A stretch of DNA of 64,000 nt. Origin: Stygiobacter sp. RIFOXYC2_FULL_38_25. GTDB lineage: Bacteria > Bacteroidota > Ignavibacteria > Ignavibacteriales > Melioribacteraceae. Shown in pieces: positions 19,118 through 28,731 of the stretch (position 1 is the stretch's first letter; each line of letters opens with the position of its first letter). The stretch spans positions 62,001 to 126,000 of the forward strand of contig MHAZ01000019.1 of assembly GCA_001803165.1 (NCBI GenBank), in the 5' to 3' direction. The notes under the pieces were generated by a model. The model was not told the origin of the DNA, searched no databases, and worked only from the letters and a program-made list of their open reading frames with translations. A program made the translations under genes and the position numbers.

Positions 19118-20731
19118 TTAGTTTGACAGCCTTTTAGAAAGGCTAACGTACAATCTCCCATACGTTTGTTTATCTTGAAACGTTCCCTCATAACTTGCAG
19201 TGAAGAACAGTGAACTGAGTATTCTCCAAGACAGATCAACGTTTCCGATTTGCTGGAAAAAGTTTGTTGTGCCGGATGCAAATTTATATTCTACACGTTT
19301 GTAACCAGTAGTCAAATTCACCCATCCATTAAATAAATCTTTGGCTAGTGATGCACCATAATAATTTCCGGTTACATAACCGGATTCTATTCTATTATAG
19401 TTTATGTAAAGAGTAGATGAGAACAGAGGCGTCTGGATATAGCTAAAATTAACTCCATAATTTTTTGATGGGCGCGGATCATCTTTACTGAAACGGTAAC
19501 CGTAATTAACACCTAACCAAATATAATTCAGAGGACGCACATTCACTCTTGCAGTAAAACCTTGCCGGGTTGCAGATTCCAAAATACTATCGGCAAATGT
19601 TTTGAATGTTTCATAATAGATTACATTTTTGCGTGCATCGTAAGAAGCGCTAAAACCAATCCAGCTACTTGGATTATACGAGCACATTGCAAAAAGGCTT
19701 GTCATGTCAAAAATGTTTTTGTCAACCCCCTTTTGCCGTTTGTAAAGATCAAACTCGGAAGAAACAAAAAAGCCCAAGCTCTGAGATAAATTGTTAGTAT
19801 GCTGCAAGTATAGAAATCTTCTATCCGTTTTGAAATTGTTTGTTTGGTTAAAAACTCCAAGTGTGTTCTGCATAGAAACTGTGCCCAATGTGTCGCTTCT
19901 GAAAACGTAACCTCCATATTCAAACATTTTGAGGTCGTAACCGTAATCAGTAAAACTAGGATGAGAGCCGGCAATAATTCCAACTACAAATTTCTTAAAT
20001 GAAGTTTCAAACTGAATTCCGTCTATTGCACCAAGGCTGGATGTTTTGAAATTTATTTTTCTACCAAGTGTTAGTTTTGTAACCGGACTGAACTCATACC
20101 GGAGAGCTAAATCATAAACTTTAAGTGCGTTACCAATATTGTTCTTTACTTCATTCCATCTGTCTGCTCTATAAGAAAAGTTAATGTATGAAGATAAGAA
20201 TAATGGAGACCGCGCTACTGTGTCTGCATCAAATGAAAAGTTTAACCGCCAGTGCTGAAAATCGGCAGAACTTGGACCATTAGATTTATTCGAATATGAT
20301 GAAACAGAAATATTTCCGTTTAGCCGCATAAATGGTAAAGGTGTAATCTTCACCGGCTCAACCAAAGACGGAGTTAAGTTTGGCTCCGTCTGTGTAATCT
20401 TTTTCTCTGAGATTTTTTCTTCGCTTGGCGGAATTACTTTTTTAACTAACGCGATTACCGCATCTTCAACTTTGAATTGATAGTTTGTAACCGATAGACC
20501 CGAACACGAATTGGATGAGACATACTGAACAACAATTGCCGGCTTAAATTTGCCGTTATCTGCTATATATAAAGTATCGTTCTTGTTAATACCGTTGGTG
20601 CTTTCGAACCGGACATAAATATTTTGCGAAGTAACAAAAGAAATCCTGCCGGTTCTTTGTTCAAAAGATTTATCCTGAGCGTTTACAAATTGTGCTATAA
20701 ATAATAGTGCTGCAAAAACTAATTTATTCAT
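19118..20731 (-). CDS. Porin-like outer-membrane barrel of the cytochrome operon
   Basis: About 537 residues. The start is placed at 20731 because a signal peptide begins there (MNKLVFAALLFIAQFVNAQ) and the codon lies two bases after the stop of the giant cytochrome gene, implying coupled translation. Residues about 25-110 form a small beta domain (RISFVTSQNIYVRFES), then a Pro/Glu/Lys linker, then a barrel (about 135-537) with repeated aromatic strands (LFLSSYINFSYRADRW, TLYINYNRIESGYVTG). Its place directly after two multiheme cytochrome genes suggests the barrel of a porin-cytochrome conduit. That role is inferred from operon position, not from a recognised family. Confidence 0.65.
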   Translation of the reverse strand: MNKLVFAALLFIAQFVNAQDKSFEQRTGRISFVTSQNIYVRFESTNGINKNDTLYIADNGKFKPAIVVQYVSSNSCSGLSVTNYQFKVEDAVIALVKKVIPPSEEKISEKKITQTEPNLTPSLVEPVKITPLPFMRLNGNISVSSYSNKSNGPSSADFQHWRLNFSFDADTVARSPLFLSSYINFSYRADRWNEVKNNIGNALKVYDLALRYEFSPVTKLTLGRKINFKTSSLGAIDGIQFETSFKKFVVGIIAGSHPSFTDYGYDLKMFEYGGYVFRSDTLGTVSMQNTLGVFNQTNNFKTDRRFLYLQHTNNLSQSLGFFVSSEFDLYKRQKGVDKNIFDMTSLFAMCSYNPSSWIGFSASYDARKNVIYYETFKTFADSILESATRQGFTARVNVRPLNYIWLGVNYGYRFSKDDPRPSKNYGVNFSYIQTPLFSSTLYINYNRIESGYVTGNYYGASLAKDLFNGWVNLTTGYKRVEYKFASGTTNFFQQIGNVDLSWRILSSLFFTASYEGTFQDKQTYGRLYVSLSKRLSN

Positions 20732-20733
20732 TT

Positions 20734-23700
20734 TTAACTTTTTCCATTTGGATGACAATTATAACATGCCGTTGACTGGTAGAGATATCCGCTCTTACCC
20801 TGATGTTCTTTGTCCATATCAGTCTTATTGTGTTCATGGCAGTTGATACATTCAAAAACTTTGTAATTACTTTGATTGGTATGACAATCAGTACATAGCG
20901 ACCATTCGCCTCTATGTTCTCCGGAGTAAATCGGGAAATATTGCCCGTCATGATTAAACGTTGACGGCTTCCAAACATTCTGTGTGTGACATTGTTCGCA
21001 AGCCAGCGGGAACTTGGCTGTTGCATGATTAGGATTAGTAACCTGATTATATTGAGTTAAATGGCAGCTAACGCAACCGGAATGCTTAGTATTGTAATTA
21101 CCGGCATGGCAGTTTGAGCATTGGTTTGCAATTTGTAAATGCGCGCCAAGAATTTGATAATAATTATTATGAATTGGGAACGTTGCCGGCTTCCAACCTG
21201 GATTGGTAGTATGGCATTGTTCGCAAGTAACAGGAATATTTATTAAAGCATGATTCGGGTTAGTCGTGCTTTGATATTTTGTAGTATGACAGCTTGAACA
21301 AGCTGTTGGCGTTCCTTTGAATGTTGTAGTATGACAGCTAGCGCATGTAACGGAAATGTGCGCACCTGTTAATGGGAACGCTGTTGTTGAGTGATTAAAC
21401 ACAGCTCCTTGCCATGTTGTTGTTGTATGGCAAACCTTGCAATCAGTCGGATATGATTTAGCAACGTGTTCCGGTGCAGAAGTATATTTTGCCTGATGGC
21501 ATGAATAACAATCGGTTGGTGTTCCAACATATCCTTTTGAGTGACAGCTATTACATATTACACTAACATGAGCACCTGTTAACGGGAATTTTGTAGTTGC
21601 ATGATTAAATGTAACACTCTTCCAATCAGTTGTATTATGGCACTGTTCACAAGTTTGGGGATAGCCCTGAGCAACATGGTTGGGCGCTGCTGTAAACTTT
21701 GCTTGATGACATGAATAACATGTTGTCGGTGTTCCGGTTAGCGTTGTTGTATGGCACGAATTGCACTTAACAGTTGTGTGAGAACCCAGCAACGGAAACT
21801 TTGTTGTGCTGTGATTAAAATTGATTGTTTTCCAATCCACGGGCGTATGGCACTGTTTGCAATCCTGCGAATAATTCTGAGCAGTATGATTTGGTGCCGC
21901 TGTAAAGTTAGCTTGATGACAAGATACGCACTCTGTCGGTGTTCCGGCAAAAACGGTTGTATGGCAACTGTTACATTTCACAGTTGTGTGAGAACCCAGC
22001 AACGGAAATTTTGTAGCAGCATGATTAAATGTTACACTTGACCAATTAGTTGTGTTGTGGCATTGCTCGCATGTTTGCGGATAACCCTTTGCAACATGTT
22101 CTGGTGCGGAACTGTATTTCGCTTGATGACATGAGTAACAAGTTGTCGGCGTTCCGGTTAGCGTTGTTGTATGGCATAAACCACACTTCACAGTAGTATG
22201 CGAACCCAGCAACGGAAACTTTGTCGTGCTGTGATTGAAGTTTATTGTTTTCCAATCCACAGGTGTATGGCACTGCTTGCAATCTTGCGGATAATTCTGA
22301 GCAGTATGATTTGGTGCCGCTGTAAAGTTAGCTTGATGACAAGATACGCACTCAGTCGGTGTTCCGGCAAAAACGGTTGTATGGCAACTATTACATTTCA
22401 CAGTTGTATGAGAACCCAGCAACGGAAATTTTGTAGCAGCATGATTAAATGTTACACTTGACCAATTAGTTGTGCTGTGGCATTGTTCACATGTCTGGGG
22501 ATAAGCCTTAGCAACATGTTCCGGTGCGGACGTGTATTTTGCCTGATGGCACGAGTAGCAGTCAGTTGGTGTTCCAACATATCCTTTTGAGTGACAACTA
22601 TTGCAAGTTACGCTAACATGCGAGCCGGTTAACGGGAATTTTGTAGTAGCGTGATTAAATGTAACAGTCTTCCAATCTGTTGTGTTATGGCACTGTTCAC
22701 AAGTTTGAGGATAACCTTGCGATACGTGATTTGGTGCGGAAGTAAATTTTGCTTGATGACACGAATAACAAGTTGTTGGCGTGCCGGTCAATGTTGTTGT
22801 ATGGCATGAACCACATTTCACAGTAGTATGCGAACCCAGCAACGGAAACTTTGTCGTGCTGTGATTGAAGTTTATCGTTTTCCAATCTACCGGCGTATGG
22901 CACTGCTTACAATCTTGAGGATAATTCTGCGAAGTATGATTTGGCGCCGCCGTAAAGTTAGCTTGATGACACGATACACACTCAGTCGGAGTGCCGGCAA
23001 ATCCTGATGTATGACAACTGCTGCACTTCACTGTTGTGTGCGAGCCAAGCAACGGAAACTTTGTCGTTGCATGATTAAATGTTACACTTGCCCAATTAGT
23101 TGTGCTATGGCATTGTTCGCATGTCTGGGGATAAGCTTTAGCAACATGTTCCGGTGCGGACGTGTATTTTGCCTGATGGCAAGAATAGCAATCTGTTGGT
23201 GTTCCTACATATCCTTTTGAGTGACAACTGTTGCATGTTACACTTACGTGAGAGCCGGTTAATGGAAACTTTGTTGTAGCGTGATTGAATGTAACACTCT
23301 TCCAATCTGTTGTGTTATGGCACTGTTCACAAATTTGAGGATATCCTTGCGATACGTGATTTGGTGCGGATGCAAACTTTGCTTGATGACATGAGTAACA
23401 AGTTGTTGGCGTGCCGGTTAGTGTTGTTGTATGGCACGAATTGCACTTAACAGTTGTGTGAGAACCAAGTAGAGGAAATCTCGTCGTGCTGTGATTGAAG
23501 TTTATTGTCTTCCAATCCACCGGCGTATGGCACTGCTTGCAATCCTGCGGATAATTTTGCGAAGAATGATTTGGTGCCGCCGCAAACTTAGCTTGATGAC
23601 ACGATACACATTCTGTCGGCGTTCCGGCATAAGTAGTTTGATGGCATTGCGTACACGGAACCGTCGTGTGTGCACCAATCAATGGGAATTTTGTTAACGA

Positions 23701-24963
23701 GTGATTTATCCCGCCCTGCTTTGTACCGGATGGATGGCAAGCATAACAAGCCCTGCTTTGATAAGCATAACCGTTCACTCCTTGATGCTCTTTATCCATA
23801 TCGCTCTTATTGTGCTCATGGCAGTTGGTGCATTCAAATGTCTTATAATTTGTTTGGTCCAAATGGCAATCGGAACAATTACTCCACTCCCCTTTATGCT
23901 CACCGGAATAAATTGGAAAATATTTTCCGTCATGATCAAAGGTTGCCGGCTTCCAAGCCGTCTGCGAATGGCAGCTTGCACAGTCGGTTGAAAACTGAGC
24001 ACCTTTATGATTTGGATTTATAGCTGAATCATACTTTTGCTGATGGCAGCTTACACACTGCCTTGCTGTTTGATTGTAACCGGTTGCATGGCATTTACTG
24101 CAATCATTTCTAATTGTGTTATGAGCGCCAACCAAAGGATATTTTAAATCATGGTTAGCAAACGTAGCCGGCTTCCATCCGCCTACACTAATTGAGTGAC
24201 ACTGTTTACAATCTTTCGCAAAATTCAATACTACATGGTTTGGAGATGTGGTGGATTCATATTTCTTTTGATGGCATGAATAGCAATCCTGAGAAAGACC
24301 TTTGTAGCTTCCTTTTGTGTGACAAGAAAAACAATCTGAAATATTATGCGCGCCTGATAAAGGGAAGAAATCATGAATAATGGAAGTTGCCGACCAGCTT
24401 GCAGCAGTAAAATTATGGCATTGCTGGCAATCTGTTGAGAAATTTGCTTGTATATGATTAGGGTCTTTCGTTGCGTTATAGTTTGCAATATGGCAATCGT
24501 AACATCTTATTCCTATCGGTTCAAATTTTAAACTTGATGCGGCTTTATGGCACTGCCGGCAATCAGCTTTAGCATGGTTACCTAGTAACGGAAATTTTCC
24601 AGTGCGGTGAAGATCAGTTATGTTTTCAATTATCCAGGTTTTGTTATTGTGGCATCGAGCGCAATTTTTTCCAACTGTGTTTGTATGAATATCGGTATGG
24701 CAATCGGAACAGTTTGCCTTTCCTTTGCTTTCGCTGAAAACCAAACTGCTATGGCATGTTCTGCACTGTACTGTTTGATGCTGACCTTTTAGCTCGAATC
24801 CGGTTTCGCTATGATTAAACAAAATTTTAGAAGGTATCACAGTCCATCCATCAACAGTATGGCAATCCTGGCAATCGCGCTTAAACTTATCTCCGTGCGG
24901 AGATTGGGCGTTGCAAAGAGAGACTGACAGCAGTAAAATTATTATGAATGACAGAGGGCGCAT
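20734..24963 (-). CDS. Giant multiheme c-type cytochrome with 58 CXXCH motifs
   Basis: 1409 residues. A signal peptide (1-20, LCNAQ) is followed by 58 CXXCH heme-attachment motifs by my count, about one per 24 residues; I saw no other cysteine in the mature chain. Residues 21-474 hold 18 motifs in less regular modules. Residues 475-1174 are ten units of exactly 70 residues, each with three CXXCH plus three further His (FNH, GSH, PNH/PEH), enough for bis-His ligation of all three hemes as in cytochrome c7/c3-like modules. Residues 1175-1409 hold ten more motifs. The first bases overlap the 20-heme gene by 22 bp and a GGAGAGG site precedes the start. An extended heme wire for periplasmic or extracellular electron transfer is likely. 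No T9SS tail or lipobox is seen. Confidence 0.93.
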   Translation of the reverse strand: MRPLSFIIILLLSVSLCNAQSPHGDKFKRDCQDCHTVDGWTVIPSKILFNHSETGFELKGQHQTVQCRTCHSSLVFSESKGKANCSDCHTDIHTNTVGKNCARCHNNKTWIIENITDLHRTGKFPLLGNHAKADCRQCHKAASSLKFEPIGIRCYDCHIANYNATKDPNHIQANFSTDCQQCHNFTAASWSATSIIHDFFPLSGAHNISDCFSCHTKGSYKGLSQDCYSCHQKKYESTTSPNHVVLNFAKDCKQCHSISVGGWKPATFANHDLKYPLVGAHNTIRNDCSKCHATGYNQTARQCVSCHQQKYDSAINPNHKGAQFSTDCASCHSQTAWKPATFDHDGKYFPIYSGEHKGEWSNCSDCHLDQTNYKTFECTNCHEHNKSDMDKEHQGVNGYAYQSRACYACHPSGTKQGGINHSLTKFPLIGAHTTVPCTQCHQTTYAGTPTECVSCHQAKFAAAPNHSSQNYPQDCKQCHTPVDWKTINFNHSTTRFPLLGSHTTVKCNSCHTTTLTGTPTTCYSCHQAKFASAPNHVSQGYPQICEQCHNTTDWKSVTFNHATTKFPLTGSHVSVTCNSCHSKGYVGTPTDCYSCHQAKYTSAPEHVAKAYPQTCEQCHSTTNWASVTFNHATTKFPLLGSHTTVKCSSCHTSGFAGTPTECVSCHQANFTAAPNHTSQNYPQDCKQCHTPVDWKTINFNHSTTKFPLLGSHTTVKCGSCHTTTLTGTPTTCYSCHQAKFTSAPNHVSQGYPQTCEQCHNTTDWKTVTFNHATTKFPLTGSHVSVTCNSCHSKGYVGTPTDCYSCHQAKYTSAPEHVAKAYPQTCEQCHSTTNWSSVTFNHAATKFPLLGSHTTVKCNSCHTTVFAGTPTECVSCHQANFTAAPNHTAQNYPQDCKQCHTPVDWKTINFNHSTTKFPLLGSHTTVKCGLCHTTTLTGTPTTCYSCHQAKYSSAPEHVAKGYPQTCEQCHNTTNWSSVTFNHAATKFPLLGSHTTVKCNSCHTTVFAGTPTECVSCHQANFTAAPNHTAQNYSQDCKQCHTPVDWKTINFNHSTTKFPLLGSHTTVKCNSCHTTTLTGTPTTCYSCHQAKFTAAPNHVAQGYPQTCEQCHNTTDWKSVTFNHATTKFPLTGAHVSVICNSCHSKGYVGTPTDCYSCHQAKYTSAPEHVAKSYPTDCKVCHTTTTWQGAVFNHSTTAFPLTGAHISVTCASCHTTTFKGTPTACSSCHTTKYQSTTNPNHALINIPVTCEQCHTTNPGWKPATFPIHNNYYQILGAHLQIANQCSNCHAGNYNTKHSGCVSCHLTQYNQVTNPNHATAKFPLACEQCHTQNVWKPSTFNHDGQYFPIYSGEHRGEWSLCTDCHTNQSNYKVFECINCHEHNKTDMDKEHQGKSGYLYQSTACYNCHPNGKS
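21442..23541 (-). repeat. Ten tandem 210-bp units in the giant cytochrome gene
   Basis: The units fall into three types: A (TPVDWKTINF, TTTLTG), B (NTTDWKSVTF, SKGYVG) and C (S/NTTNW, FAGTPTECVSC). The order in the protein is A B C, A B C, A C, A B. The third set lacks B, and its A-C junction is a hybrid (YSSAPEHVAKGYPQ), the footprint expected of unequal recombination. The higher-order period is 630 bp. Confidence 0.9.
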
Positions 24964-26531
24964 CTTACCTCTCCAAATTTATATTTTATGTATTTTCCTT
25001 TCTCATCAACCACTTGTTTATGGCAGCGGTTACAGCTTACTTTAGAATGTGCCCCATCTAATGGAAAGGATGTTTTATTATGATCGAATAATTCCGGCTT
25101 CCAGTTATTAAATTGATGACAGCTCCGGCATAATTCAATACCATTTTTTGTGAACTGACCGGCATGAACATCATTATGGCATTCAAGGCATTCCGTTTTT
25201 CGCTTGAAACTAATTATTAACCTATTTCCAATTTCATTACGGACATGGCATTTATTACAACTTTGCTTTTGATGATTTCCGAGCAATAAAAATTTCGTCG
25301 TATTGTGATCAAAAGTTACCGATTTCCACTTCTCGGTTGTGTGACATGATTCGCATGTTTTTCCCGTAAGAAGTTTTTGCGGAATTGAGCCGCCGTGAAT
25401 GTCTTTATGACAGTCGGTACATTCTCTTTTTTCAATTTTGAAATTCCACTTTTCAGTTTTTTTATGACAGCTCTGACATGGAATAGCAAGATGAGCTCCG
25501 GTAAGAATGAAGTTGGATTTTATATGCCTCTCAATTGTATAAGAAGTGGAATTGAATCCGTCTATGGAATGACAAACCGCGCAATCGGCTTGAGTTCCGT
25601 TTTTGGTAAATTCTCCTTGATGATAATCCGAATGACAGTTAATACACTTTTCAAATTTTGGTTTGGTATTCAATCCATTTTTATGACAGGCTTTGCAATC
25701 AACATTGGTATGCTTTCCGAGCAAAGGATAATTTGTTTTGGCATGGTCAAAGTTGGTTAAGTTTTTTATGGTATGAAATGATTCGGTTACGTGACAAGAG
25801 CTGCACTTATCTCCAAACTTTCCTTTATGGAAATCTTGATGGCACGAAGTGCATGATGAAAACTCCACTCCTTTGAACTTCTGGAATCTCTTTTCATTTC
25901 TCGTTTCAACAGCGTGGCATTTAGCGCAGTCAACTCTTTGATGCGCGCCGGTCAAATCAAATTTTGCCGAATTATGCTTAAACTTTGAAGCCGGGCGGAA
26001 AGAATCACCCTCATGACAATTTTGGCAAGCGTTGCCCAAACTTCCTTGATGTGAATCTTGATGGCAAGAAACGCATGTTGCCTTTAATCCTAAAAATGTT
26101 CCTTTATTTTTTTTGTATTTCGCATCCGACATTAAATCCGGCGTGTGGCATTTGAAGCAATCTGTTTGAGCATGTTTTCCGGTGAGTTGAAAACTTGTTT
26201 TGGAGTGATCAAAGGTTTTGGGATTGAAATTAACTATTCTAAATTTTCTGCCGTGATGTTCACTGTGGCATTTGATGCAGCTTTTACTTCTAACATCGGA
26301 ACTTGAGTGGAATCCTTTATTCTCTTTCTGTAACTGTGATATTTCGGTGTGGCATGCAAGACATTCGTTATTGCGAACCTGTCCGCCGATGTTATGGCAT
26401 TTGGTACAGTTGCTCATTCCCTCTAAATTGGAATGCGCAGTTGACAAATCTCCCGGCGAGATTTGTGCGGATAATTTTGCGCACATAAATACCGAGAAAA
26501 GTATTACAGTTATTAGTCTTGATGTTTTAAT
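24942..26531 (-). CDS. Multiheme c-type cytochrome with 20 CXXCH motifs
   Basis: About 529 residues with 20 CXXCH motifs by my count, from SNCTKCHNIGG to VRCALCHS at the C-terminus. Many sit in pairs with FDH or FKH-type histidines before GKH or GAH, as in bis-His cytochromes. The first ATG (26486) would leave only MCAKLSAQ before the mature region. Reading 15 codons upstream to an ATT at 26531 restores a classic signal peptide (MKTSRLITVILFSVF) behind GGAGAGGCGGT. An AUU start is therefore proposed, 18 bp inside the previous gene. The product probably passes electrons between the inner-membrane module and the giant cytochrome or porin. Confidence 0.9.
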   Translation of the reverse strand: MKTSRLITVILFSVFMCAKLSAQISPGDLSTAHSNLEGMSNCTKCHNIGGQVRNNECLACHTEISQLQKENKGFHSSSDVRSKSCIKCHSEHHGRKFRIVNFNPKTFDHSKTSFQLTGKHAQTDCFKCHTPDLMSDAKYKKNKGTFLGLKATCVSCHQDSHQGSLGNACQNCHEGDSFRPASKFKHNSAKFDLTGAHQRVDCAKCHAVETRNEKRFQKFKGVEFSSCTSCHQDFHKGKFGDKCSSCHVTESFHTIKNLTNFDHAKTNYPLLGKHTNVDCKACHKNGLNTKPKFEKCINCHSDYHQGEFTKNGTQADCAVCHSIDGFNSTSYTIERHIKSNFILTGAHLAIPCQSCHKKTEKWNFKIEKRECTDCHKDIHGGSIPQKLLTGKTCESCHTTEKWKSVTFDHNTTKFLLLGNHQKQSCNKCHVRNEIGNRLIISFKRKTECLECHNDVHAGQFTKNGIELCRSCHQFNNWKPELFDHNKTSFPLDGAHSKVSCNRCHKQVVDEKGKYIKYKFGEVRCALCHS

Positions 26532-27856
26532 ACCGCCTCTCCGTATTTTTTGGTTATTCTAATTCCAGCTTTGGAGAGAAACTCATTTGGAAGCTCTCCT
26601 CCGGCAAAAATGTAAACCAAATCGTTTTTAATTTCTTTCTCTACTGTTACACCGTTCTGCTCGAACATAATTTTTACGGTCTTTTCTGATATCTTAACAA
26701 TATTGGACTTGAACATGACATTTATTGTTTTCTCTTCAACGGCTTTCTTAATATTCTCAAAATTTTTCGGTTTGATTCTTGAAAAAGAATCTCCTCTGTA
26801 CGAAAGTGTGATAGTATTATTTCCTTCGATCAAAGCTAATGCGGTCTCAATAGCAGAATCTCCGCCGCCAACTACAAGTACATCTTGATTGTTAACAAAT
26901 TCCGGCTCGATTAATCTGTAAGAAACTTTTTCCAGTTCTTCTCCTTCAACACCTAATTTTCTTGGTGAACCGCGGCGCCCAATAGCTAGAAGAACAGAGT
27001 TGGTTGTAATTGTTTTCTTATTTGTCTGAACTACGAAGTGATCTTCGTTCTTTTCAATAGAAATAACACGTTCGTTTTCTTGTATTGTAATATTGTTTTT
27101 TGTTAATACTTCATCCCATAAACCAAGTAATTCTGTCTTAGTTATTTCAGTTTTTTTAAACTTTCCATACAACGGCAAATGCATCGGCGCTGTCATAATT
27201 ATTTTCTTTCTGGGGAACGAATAAACCGTACCACCCAAACTATCTTGCTCAATAGTAATAGCTTTTAATTTGCTCTCTTTAGCGGCAAGCGAAGCAGATA
27301 TTCCAGCTGGACCAGCGCCTATTATAACAATATCATATTCAGCTTTGGGAGAGCGGGTTAAGCTTTTGCTGATGTTATCTATAGCTTGTTTACCTTGAAT
27401 AACCGCATTCTTTATAAGACCCATACCGCCAAGTTCACCCGCAATAAAAATTCCTTTTACGTTTGTTTCAAAGTGCGGACTAACATGTGGTAAATCAACA
27501 CCTCTCTTCTCAGTACCGATTACAAGCGTGATTGCGCCAAGAGGACAAGAATGAAAGCAAGCTCCATGTCCAACACAACGTGATGCATGTATAGTAGCCG
27601 CTTTACCTTCTACCATACCAAGAATATCTTTTTCCGGACAAGAAGCCACGCAAGCCGCGCTACCAATGCAAATATCTAAATTAACAACCGGATGCAAAGA
27701 AACCGGCTCGTGAAAACCAAGCTCTTTAGCTTTCTCAATTTTTTGTTTTACTGTTTTAGTCTGTTTCTTTCCTCTTCTAAGCTGAAAGTAAATTAAAGAC
27801 GCCAGCAGCAAAACAATAAATGAGTAGGTAATAATATTTTCTATCAGAACTTCCAT
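26513..27856 (-). CDS. Membrane-anchored ferredoxin-like/FAD-NAD(P) oxidoreductase
   Basis: 447 residues. One N-terminal helix (about 7-25) is followed by a two-cluster ferredoxin-like domain (57-110) and a thioredoxin-reductase-like flavoprotein domain (about 172-447), with GAGPAG (180-185), a second dinucleotide fold VVGGGDSAIETA and a C-terminal VYIFAGGELPN. The cluster motifs are CIGSAACVASCP and CVGHGACFHSCP: the second Cys of each CxxCxxCxxxCP motif is Ser or His. No CxxC redox disulfide is seen in the flavoprotein part, so it is not a true thioredoxin reductase. It starts 11 bp after the cytochrome b-like gene and probably moves electrons between NAD(P)H and the membrane or hemes. Confidence 0.85.
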   Translation of the reverse strand: MEVLIENIITYSFIVLLLASLIYFQLRRGKKQTKTVKQKIEKAKELGFHEPVSLHPVVNLDICIGSAACVASCPEKDILGMVEGKAATIHASRCVGHGACFHSCPLGAITLVIGTEKRGVDLPHVSPHFETNVKGIFIAGELGGMGLIKNAVIQGKQAIDNISKSLTRSPKAEYDIVIIGAGPAGISASLAAKESKLKAITIEQDSLGGTVYSFPRKKIIMTAPMHLPLYGKFKKTEITKTELLGLWDEVLTKNNITIQENERVISIEKNEDHFVVQTNKKTITTNSVLLAIGRRGSPRKLGVEGEELEKVSYRLIEPEFVNNQDVLVVGGGDSAIETALALIEGNNTITLSYRGDSFSRIKPKNFENIKKAVEEKTINVMFKSNIVKISEKTVKIMFEQNGVTVEKEIKNDLVYIFAGGELPNEFLSKAGIRITKKYGEAVLKHQD

Positions 27857-27867
27857 TACGGATCCTC

Positions 27868-28731
27868 TCAGAATATCCAGCGGTAACCAAAGGCTACGGT
27901 TACGCCAATATGGATGATCATAATTATGAGCATTATAATTGCAAACGGTAAATGAATAATATGCCAGTAGCGAAACATTTCTTGAACAGAATTGAGCAAA
28001 CTAATTTTTCGCGATAGTACCAATTTAGATTTACATATGGCAGTAATTTGTTTTATTGATTTCTCCGACAGTTTCTCATTTCTCAATTCAATCTTAAATT
28101 CATTAAGCAACTTTTTATTTGCGTTGTGATCTTTAATAGTAAGAGGAATTATTGAAATCAGATTGGGAGACTTATAAACCTTTAACGAGGCAAAGTATTC
28201 AAGCTTTCCAATTAATGTATCATTTAGATTGAACTCATTTCTTAATTTTTCGCCGTAAGATTGATTCAAGGTTTTTAATTCATCCATCGAATATTCATTA
28301 CCTCTAATAGAGCGGGGAATTTGAACATATATAAATCTTCCTATCACTCCGCTAACCGCCACAGCTACCATAGACCAAAAACTTAAAGCAACAATTCCGC
28401 CAAACTTAAAAGCCGTATGAAACAAAACCAGCACCGGACCAACGCTGCACAAAAAGATGTGTAGTTCCAGCCAATGTTTGATAGCTCCCAATCTTGAAAA
28501 AGATTTTAACCTCTTTCTCATCATATATAGACCTACGCCAACAAGCATCATTAGCGAGCCAATTATTCCCAAACCATGTCCAATAATTCCACTTGGTTTT
28601 AGGATAGTGTGAACCGGGTGAAAGAAACGCTCTTCGTAAGGAGTTAAATAATAACTATACCCGGAGTAACCCAAGTAAATAAAGGTAGTTGTACCAATAA
28701 GTAAATAAATCCAATGTTGCAGCTTTATCAT
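27868..28731 (-). CDS. Cytochrome b-like integral membrane protein
   Basis: 287 residues with about five transmembrane helices (near 8-25, 48-70, 88-108, 115-135 and 258-280) and a soluble segment at 140-245. Histidines in or near helices (His52, His86, His91, His105 and the WHIIHLP and IIMIIHIG segments close to the C-terminus) could ligate two b hemes, as in cytochrome b561-like or ferric-reductase-like proteins. It is the first clear gene of the run leading into the flavoprotein and the two multiheme cytochromes. A quinol-linked electron entry point is inferred. Confidence 0.7.
   Translation of the reverse strand: MIKLQHWIYLLIGTTTFIYLGYSGYSYYLTPYEERFFHPVHTILKPSGIIGHGLGIIGSLMMLVGVGLYMMRKRLKSFSRLGAIKHWLELHIFLCSVGPVLVLFHTAFKFGGIVALSFWSMVAVAVSGVIGRFIYVQIPRSIRGNEYSMDELKTLNQSYGEKLRNEFNLNDTLIGKLEYFASLKVYKSPNLISIIPLTIKDHNANKKLLNEFKIELRNEKLSEKSIKQITAICKSKLVLSRKISLLNSVQEMFRYWHIIHLPFAIIMLIIMIIHIGVTVAFGYRWIF

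What the first reader, a model, noticed from the sequence alone, without database searches (positions are those of the whole stretch)
20734..24963. Giant cytochrome with 58 predicted hemes in one chain
I count 58 CXXCH motifs in 1409 residues, with no other mature-chain cysteine seen. The ten central 70-residue units each carry three CXXCH and three spare His in fixed positions (FNH, GSH, PNH), enough for bis-His ligation. This predicts a rigid linear heme wire built from c7-like triheme modules. Few single chains carry so many hemes.
Basis: partly seen in the sequence, partly recalled or inferred. Interest (0 to 1): 0.88.

Follow-up and report, generated by a model that had tools for sequence, protein, structure and literature searches.

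The report
Modular 58-heme electron-wire cytochrome
This bacterium carries a gene for one protein chain with sites for 58 iron-containing hemes, built from repeated three-heme blocks, which most likely conducts electrons across and beyond the outer membrane as one part of a known kind of electron conduit whose wire length varies between species, nearly always in steps of three hemes.

Summary
Observation confirmed: the minus-strand ORF 20734-24963 has 58 CXXCH in 1409 residues, no other mature-chain cysteine, and ten exact 70-residue units with three CXXCH plus three other His each. It sits in a conserved operon: b-type membrane protein, Fe-S/FAD oxidoreductase, 20-heme cytochrome, 58-heme cytochrome, beta-barrel. 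That matches, by architecture and inner-membrane motifs, the "PCC3" porin-cytochrome conduit described in Proteobacteria, where single chains reach 85 hemes. So the size is no record and the wire idea is in print; here is an Ignavibacteria/Bacteroidota version with an added Fe-S/FAD gene. A regularity I did not find in print: the large chain carries 3n+1 hemes (10 to 64). Counting CX2-4CH, 53 of 58 uncut ORFs fit (41 by strict CXXCH), then 20 of 20 in a second set. The adjacent cytochrome has 20 hemes in 78 of 80 loci. Repeats differ mostly by synonymous changes, so the extra hemes look selected. Best reading: a length-variable triheme wire, probably outside the cell, fed by a nearly fixed 20-heme envelope segment. 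Heme attachment, geometry and location are untested; AlphaFold gave low confidence for the repeats.

The parts
20734..24963 (-). 58-heme c-type cytochrome, 1409 aa, ordinary signal peptide, the variable-length partner
   Evidence: ORF; 58 CXXCH; Pfam Cytochrome_C7; no lipobox pattern
23956..24903 (-). N-terminal 13-heme region (residues 21-336), conserved in relatives
   Evidence: Alignment A3, window plus 73 of 78 relatives' fragments; AlphaFold mean pLDDT 80, pTM 0.47
23689..23955 (-). Internal copy of the terminal three-heme cassette (residues 337-425, ends CHPSG)
   Evidence: Sequence; units 2 and 16
21415..23514 (-). Ten exact 70-residue triheme units (residues 484-1183), of three types in the order A-B-C-A-B-C-A-C-A-B
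   Evidence: types read from the identity table
20734..20973 (-). C-terminal three-heme cassette (residues 1331-1409, ends CHPNGKS)
24942..26486 (-). 20-heme cytochrome, the nearly constant partner (frame open 24 codons further upstream; start codon of the signal peptide unclear)
   Evidence: 20 hemes in 78 of 80 related loci
26513..27856 (-). Oxidoreductase: N-terminal hydrophobic stretch, two ferredoxin-like motifs, FAD/NAD(P)-binding thioredoxin-reductase-like domain
   Evidence: blastp relative in 73 of 76 loci with enough flank
27868..28731 (-). Inner-membrane b-type protein, 287 aa, two WX3HX13H and SGXXG motifs (two predicted b hemes)
   Evidence: blastp relative in 56 of 61 loci with enough flank
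19118..20731 (-). Outer-membrane beta-barrel (porin-like, inferred) with a small N-terminal domain
   Evidence: blastp relative in 55 of 56 loci; next ORF over 400 aa in 53 of 56, ending in F, W, Y or R in 47; no Pfam family

Best explanation
The gene encodes the large cytochrome of a PCC3-type porin-cytochrome conduit in an Ignavibacteria bacterium (named so from its nearest named relatives). Electrons enter at the inner membrane through the b-type protein (two predicted b hemes), possibly fed by the Fe-S/FAD oxidoreductase, pass along the 20-heme cytochrome across the periplasm and through the beta-barrel, and run along the 58-heme chain to an acceptor outside the cell (or the reverse direction). 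The chain is a conserved N-terminal region plus whole triheme units, each meant to bind three bis-His hemes, plus a C-terminal cassette. It grows and shrinks by unequal recombination between in-frame repeats, so its heme number stays 3n+1. Shown here: sequence anatomy, operon conservation, the 3n+1 rule, the nearly fixed partner, mostly synonymous differences between repeats. Inferred: heme attachment, ligation, linear stacking, recombination as the means, extracellular location, direction of flow.
For: 58 CXXCH and more spare His than hemes. Conserved gene set in 80 named loci: barrel relative in 55 of 56, oxidoreductase in 73 of 76, b-type protein in 56 of 61, counting loci with enough flank and any same-strand ORF of the locus. 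Partner has 20 hemes in 78 of 80 while the uncut large chains vary from 12 to 61, and their number changes at least 39 times on a tree of 58 partner proteins: what a fixed envelope span plus a free outer end would give. 3n+1 counting CX2-4CH: 53 of 58, then 20 of 20 non-duplicate uncut chains in a second set, and 40 hemes on a plasmid recorded as complete. Repeat blocks ABC1 and ABC2 differ at 58 codons synonymously and 11 non-synonymously: purifying selection on the repeats. Inner-membrane motifs match those of PCC3. The profile of the 20-heme protein best matches 3ov0, E 9e-9; that of the N-terminal region matches it third, E 3.5e-5, after 1z1n and 6i5b. PMC10138318 identifies 3ov0 as GSU1996, a triheme-domain wire with 3-5 angstrom heme gaps (passages).
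Against: No structure of the repeats of usable quality (pLDDT 60); no PDB fold match for the N-terminal model. By strict CXXCH only 41 of 58 chains are 3n+1. The chain has no lipobox pattern (1 of 58 chains has one, L093) and NCBIfam finds no type IX sorting tail in it although its genome has many, so its route to the outside is unexplained; one secretin is present in the genome, so a type II route is not excluded. The partner is not quite fixed: 23 hemes in L108, L154, L157 and Emticicia. The tree is a quick one with 17 of 55 inner branches weakly supported. The named sample is the best 80 of 483 relatives. Printed counts of other PCC3 or Ignavibacteria chains include 63 and 33, which are not 3n+1. 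No expression data.
Confidence: 0.65

Rival explanations
1. The large chain stays in the periplasm and works as an electron store or lateral periplasmic wire, while the 20-heme protein alone crosses the outer membrane through the barrel.
For: Ordinary signal peptide, no lipobox pattern, no type IX sorting tail. GSU1996, the solved triheme-domain chain, is described as functioning as a capacitor (passages of PMC10138318).
Against: A barrel relative in 55 of 56 loci. He et al. class the larger chain of PCC3 as extracellular. Variation from 10 to 64 hemes is harder to fit in a space of fixed width than outside it, though not impossible.
Confidence: 0.22
2. The system runs inward: electrons are taken up from Fe(II), a cathode or a partner cell and delivered to quinone or NAD(P)+.
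For: PCC3 was first proposed in Fe(II) oxidisers (PMC5566968, sections 15 and 17). The operon holds an FAD/NAD(P)-type oxidoreductase that could be the electron sink.
Against: Ignavibacteria are reported from anode biofilms, with iron-reducing species among them (PMC7399161, section 21). Sequence cannot tell direction.
Confidence: 0.3
3. The heme number is an assembly artefact or the repeats are decaying and mostly not heme-bearing.
For: Repetitive DNA; nearly all named relatives are metagenome-assembled genomes.
Against: Longest exact repeat 66 nt. 58 synonymous against 11 non-synonymous codon differences between repeat blocks. A plasmid recorded as complete (Emticicia oligotrophica pEMTOL02) has 40; genomes held as one contig have 22 (G184, L154) and 43 (G171, L138). 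Each of the ten units keeps six Cys and six His.
Confidence: 0.03
4. The 3n+1 rule is only a by-product of recombination between equal-length repeats and carries no functional meaning.
For: Unequal crossing-over between tandem repeats gives whole units by itself; the window's repeats show higher-order A-B-C copies.
Against: The repeats are held by purifying selection. Outright loss of a motif is rare: L093 is the one case seen inside the triplets among 56 unbroken uncut chains, while 13 of the 56 (L093 included) have one motif with altered spacing, CX3-4CH. Mechanism and selection may both act.
Confidence: 0.5

Closest known systems
PCC3 porin-cytochrome cluster (He et al. 2017, PMC5566968; sections 15 and 17 read)
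   Same: Porin, large repeat-rich cytochrome (median 34, up to 85 hemes), second cytochrome of about 20 hemes (median 21), about 300-aa inner-membrane protein with two WX3HX13H and SGXXG, low residue-per-heme ratio, Thr/Ser-rich repeats
   Different: Reported there in Alpha-, Beta- and Gammaproteobacteria; here Ignavibacteria and other Bacteroidota, with an Fe-S/FAD oxidoreductase gene between inner-membrane protein and cytochromes (not in the description read). Direct sequence homology could not be tested.
GSU1996 dodecaheme 'nanowire' cytochrome of Geobacter (PDB 3ov0)
   Same: Single chain made of triheme c7-like domains in a row; profile match to the 20-heme partner (best hit) and to the N-terminal region (third hit)
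   Different: 12 hemes, one His-Met heme per domain (passages of PMC10138318); here no Met in the ten central units. The profile of the central units did not list 3ov0; its best hit was 1z1n, a sixteen-heme cytochrome.
Large-cytochrome conduits in bioanode genomes, PMC7399161 (sections 18 and 21 and passages read)
   Same: Burkholderiales: porin beside a 24-heme and a 49-heme chain, the larger one varying by gain or loss of heme domains; wire idea stated. Ignavibacteria: two genomes whose largest chains have 40 and 33 hemes
   Different: The Ignavibacteria clusters there were called by OmbB- and MtrB-type porin models; our porin was not compared with OmbB. No 3n+1 rule in the parts read, though for Chloroflexi they suggest hemes are gained or lost in pairs or multiples.
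ANME S-layer cytochromes (PMC9012536, passages read)
   Same: Single chains with up to 86 hemes proposed for extracellular electron transfer
   Different: Archaeal, several carry S-layer or pectin-lyase-type domains; no outer-membrane barrel

Membership tests
PCC3 porin-cytochrome conduit | Outer-membrane beta-barrel gene in the cluster | tested here: met
   19118-20731; blastp relative in 55 of 56 loci; next ORF over 400 aa in 53 of 56, 47 ending in F, W, Y or R. No Pfam match and no significant PDB match, so the barrel itself is inferred
PCC3 porin-cytochrome conduit | Large repeat-rich cytochrome, 22-39 residues per heme | tested here: met
   58 hemes, 24.3 residues per heme, tandem repeats
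PCC3 porin-cytochrome conduit | Second cytochrome, median 21 hemes | tested here: met
   20 hemes, 514 aa
PCC3 porin-cytochrome conduit | Inner-membrane protein with two WX3HX13H and, between them, SGXXG | tested here: met
   WX3HX13H at 87 and 256, SGXXG at 127 (another SGXXG at 47)
PCC3 porin-cytochrome conduit | Five transmembrane helices in the inner-membrane protein | tested here: inconclusive
   A simple hydropathy scan finds four segments at its threshold; an N-terminal hydrophobic stretch visible in the sequence is not among them
PCC3 porin-cytochrome conduit | Larger cytochrome extracellular, smaller periplasmic | not testable with these tools
   No lipobox pattern and no type IX sorting tail found; needs cell fractionation
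PCC3 porin-cytochrome conduit | Sequence homology to the proteobacterial PCC3 proteins | not testable with these tools
   No PCC3 reference sequence reached; plasmid searches found Emticicia plus records with shorter matches; one search failed
GSU1996-type triheme wire | Tandem c7-like triheme domains | tested here: met
   Cytochrome_C7 in 10 stretches; N-terminal profile matches 3ov0, E 3.5e-5. But NCBIfam nanowire_3heme scores below its cut-off, 21 against 40 bits, and the profile of the units does not list 3ov0
GSU1996-type triheme wire | One His-Met heme per domain | tested here: not met
   Met only at residues 1, 389, 1383
MtrCAB | Decaheme periplasmic and decaheme outer cytochromes | tested here: not met
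   20 and 58 hemes; only a weak local match of the 20-heme profile to 6r2q_A, E 7e-4 (that this chain is MtrA is recalled, the table names it otherwise)
OmbB-OmaB-OmcB type Pcc | Porin homologous to OmbB | not tested
   No OmbB reference fetched

The most novel reading that the evidence does not exclude
In this Bacteroidota/Ignavibacteria branch the outer cytochrome changes its heme number only in whole three-heme steps (3n+1, seen from 10 to 64), while the envelope-spanning partner is fixed at 20 (sometimes 23). Evolution would then have made a ready length series of single-chain, all-His heme wires of graded length (tens of nanometres at the long end), attached to one near-constant conduit, which would let conduction be measured against wire length in otherwise matched proteins.
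Probability: 0.5. Interest if true: 0.75.

Novelty: new variant of a known kind. Interest (0 to 1): 0.52.

Why it matters
How single heme chains carry electrons over tens of nanometres, and whether length is selected, is open. PMC7399161 itself calls heme-number variation in homologous cytochromes an unexplored area (section 21). Here the variation follows a simple rule, the partner protein is a near-constant internal control, and a relative sits on a plasmid, recorded as complete, of the cultured strain Emticicia oligotrophica DSM 17448, so the idea can be tested at the bench. It also places a PCC3-type conduit in Ignavibacteria and other Bacteroidota.

Tried and rejected
Structure: AlphaFold on the N-terminal 13-heme region gave pLDDT 80 but pTM 0.47, and a Foldseek search of it against the PDB returned no match. 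Five central units gave pLDDT 60, pTM 0.25, so I did not search with that model and drew no geometry from either.

Alignments: A2 (81 fragments, 719 columns) was too gappy because cassettes and units differ in length; replaced by A4 (window plus 24 of the 40 filtered fragments). A3 holds the window plus 73 of the 78 fragments. A1 is the window plus 14 hand-picked partners. A5 is the window plus 20 of the 22 barrel candidates printed from 48.

Iron-sulfur regex was wrong (2 of 67 and 0 of 77 matched); corrected, where 75 of 77 matched.

Plasmid hits in Sphingobium and Qipengyuania lie in a different, short cluster: the Sphingobium cytochrome has 7 motifs and its membrane protein one WX3HX13H. 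Not used as PCC3 references.

Artefact, chance and decay were considered and rejected. The binomial figures assume independence and are not relied on; the 39 changes on the tree and the second sample carry the argument. Exceptions to 3n+1: L091 and L098 (12 hemes, no CHPxG cassette end), L093 (one motif has lost a Cys), L099 and L110 (frames broken beside runs of N). In that set 20 of 78 large chains ran off a contig end and were dropped from the count, and 2 of 80 loci had no adjacent large chain. In one search, of 25 loci, 2 repeat earlier loci (L135, also cut, and L136), 3 are cut (L135, L137, L139) and L158 has no adjacent complete chain, leaving 20 counted; 19 of these 20 also fit with strict CXXCH (L143: 38 strict, 40 with CX2-4CH).
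Full report
WHAT IS THERE. The minus-strand ORF at 20734-24963 encodes 1409 residues with 58 CXXCH motifs; the single cysteine outside a motif is C17 in the signal peptide. Shuffles of the same residues give 0.8 motifs on average and at most 5. There are 61 histidines outside the motifs and methionine only at 1, 389 and 1383. Residues 484-1183 are ten units of exactly 70 residues, each with six Cys and six His in fixed places. Pfam scores Cytochrome_C7 at 1.3e-56 in ten stretches.

ANATOMY. Heme spacing along the chain is irregular at first and then falls into triplets. The units are not equal copies: by the identity table they fall into three types in the order A-B-C-A-B-C-A-C-A-B; like types share 79-96% of bases, unlike types 60-70%. 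A distinct three-heme cassette ending CHPxG occurs once inside (residues 337-425) and once at the C-terminus. Blocks ABC1 and ABC2 differ at 58 codons synonymously and 11 non-synonymously; the two most alike units differ by 7 and 1. The repeats are therefore old enough to diverge and are held by purifying selection. The longest exact repeat is 66 nt, so the length is probably not an assembly error.

OPERON. Upstream to downstream on the minus strand: a 287-aa membrane protein with two WX3HX13H motifs and SGXXG; a 447-aa protein with two ferredoxin-like motifs and an FAD/NAD(P)-binding domain; a 514-aa cytochrome with 20 CXXCH; the 58-heme chain; and a barrel-like protein without a Pfam family. 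The genes overlap or lie within about 30 bases of each other.

RELATIVES. The same chain family is found in 30 of 58 genomes of the genus, family and order, the window's own included. Counting only loci with enough flank, and any same-strand ORF in the locus, a relative of the barrel is present in 55 of 56, of the oxidoreductase in 73 of 76, of the b-type protein in 56 of 61. A plasmid of Emticicia oligotrophica DSM 17448, recorded as complete, carries five corresponding genes in the same order, the barrel judged by position and its N-terminal sequence, with 23 and 40 hemes. In a sample of 395 genomes of the phylum, own included, 38 have a relative of the 20-heme protein at E below 1e-40.

THE 3n+1 RULE. 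In the 80 loci the partner has exactly 20 CXXCH in 78; one is split by a stop (5+15) and one has 23. The large chain was adjacent in 78 and uncut in 58. Its strict CXXCH count is 1 modulo 3 in 41 of 58; counting CX2-4CH, which adds one atypical motif in 12 further chains, 53 of 58. CX3-4CH motifs are said to have been shown to bind heme (passage of PMC4245776). The five exceptions are two 12-heme chains without the CHPxG end, one chain with a lost Cys, and two frames broken beside runs of N. Having seen this, I fetched the 25 loci of the phylum sample that I had not yet fetched. Of 20 uncut, non-duplicate large chains, 20 fit (19 by strict count): 10, 10, 10, 10, 19, 22, 22, 25, 25, 28, 31, 34, 34, 37, 37, 40, 40, 43, 61 and 64 hemes; their partners have 20 in 23 of 25 loci and 23 in two. 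On a quick maximum-likelihood tree of 58 partner proteins (56 unbroken uncut loci, the window, Emticicia) the heme number of the large chain changes at least 39 times; 17 of its 55 inner branches are weakly supported. The window's nearest relative in that tree, 76% identical in the partner, has 34 hemes against 58 here. So the large chain is a fast length variable made of whole triheme units, and the partner is nearly constant.

STRUCTURE. AlphaFold gave mean pLDDT 80 and pTM 0.47 for the 13-heme N-terminal region and 60 and 0.25 for five units. Foldseek found no PDB match for the former. Sequence profiles match solved multiheme chains: 3ov0 first for the 20-heme protein (9e-9) and third for the N-terminal region (3.5e-5, after 1z1n and 6i5b); 1z1n first for the units, where 3ov0 is not listed. 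PMC10138318 (passages) identifies 3ov0 as GSU1996: four triheme domains in a row, hemes 3-5 angstrom apart edge to edge, one His-Met heme per domain. In the window's ten central units there is no Met, so an all-His wire is the expectation. Heme spacing remains untested.

HOW IT PROBABLY WORKS. The set of parts is that of a conduit: inner-membrane b-type protein, a near-fixed heme chain, a barrel, and a variable heme chain. The natural reading of 'fixed next to variable' is that the 20-heme protein must span a set distance (periplasm and outer membrane) and the large chain has a free end. If hemes run about 1 nm apart, as I recall for GSU1996, 58 hemes would reach roughly 50-60 nm. This is inference. 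Against it, the large chain has an ordinary signal peptide, no lipobox pattern, and no type IX sorting tail by NCBIfam, although 150 such tails are matched elsewhere in the genome (150 of 177 candidates scored); one secretin gene is present. How it would leave the cell is unknown. A periplasmic store is the main rival. Direction of flow cannot be told from sequence.

COMPARISON WITH WHAT IS KNOWN. He et al. 2017 (PMC5566968; passages, sections 15 and 17 in full) described PCC3 in Proteobacteria: porin, large repeat-rich cytochrome (median 34 hemes, 63 and 85 in extreme cases), second cytochrome (median 21), and an inner-membrane protein with the motifs found here. They already proposed a molecular wire. 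PMC7399161 (passages, sections 18 and 21 in full) reported chains of 24 and 49 hemes beside a porin in Burkholderiales, largest chains of 40 and 33 in two Ignavibacteria genomes, gain and loss of heme domains, and, for Chloroflexi chains, a hint that motifs come and go in pairs or multiples. ANME archaea have up to 86 (PMC9012536, passages). The printed 63 and 33 are not 3n+1; whether they belong to this family, or have atypical motifs, I could not check. The window's system is thus a PCC3-type conduit in another phylum with an additional Fe-S/FAD gene. I found no paper stating the 3n+1 rule or placing PCC3 in Bacteroidota in the ten searches made, of which I saw listings and opened seven papers; subscription journals and preprints are mostly not covered. 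Of PMC11475568 I read parts 1 and 2 of 3; its supplementary tables were not seen and may list these clusters. PMC8258643 and PMC4245776 were seen as passages.

VERDICT. Real, functional-looking, and largely explained: a new variant of a known kind. The size alone is not new. The step rule and the near-constant partner are what deserve follow-up.

Noticed in passing
26513-27856 (-): In the oxidoreductase the second-cysteine position of the second ferredoxin-like motif is His (CX2HX2CX3CP) in 75 of the 75 relatives (of 77 tested) in which both motifs were found; in the first motif it is Ser 45, Thr 27, Cys 2, Val 1. An unusual conserved His beside an Fe-S site.
   Followed up: partly
26486-26558 (-): The 20-heme gene has no ATG that would give a full signal peptide; the frame is open 24 codons upstream, over the end of the previous gene. 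In 14 of 23 relatives listed the first start codon after the preceding stop is TTG or GTG. Possible non-standard, coupled start.
   Followed up: partly
L159:3452-17999 (own genome, contig C6): A second, separate multiheme cluster with chains of 13, 19, 16, 4, 14 and 8 motifs (CX2-4CH; the last cut by the end of the stretch) and a 421-aa outer-membrane-like protein; perhaps the OmbB-type conduit reported for Ignavibacteria.
   Followed up: no
L155:1-19001 (genome G262): Largest relative seen: 1662-residue open frame, 64 hemes, unit spacing 34/22/21 residues instead of 32/15/23, still 3n+1.
   Followed up: no
L131:3595-15393: Emticicia oligotrophica carries the whole system on plasmid pEMTOL02 with a large CcsA-type cytochrome maturation gene directly upstream, a hint that the system can move as a unit.
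   Followed up: no
L041:7073-14474 (genome G047): Two large chains (19 and 34 hemes) with a 535-aa barrel-like ORF between them in one locus: a possible duplicated wire.
   Followed up: no
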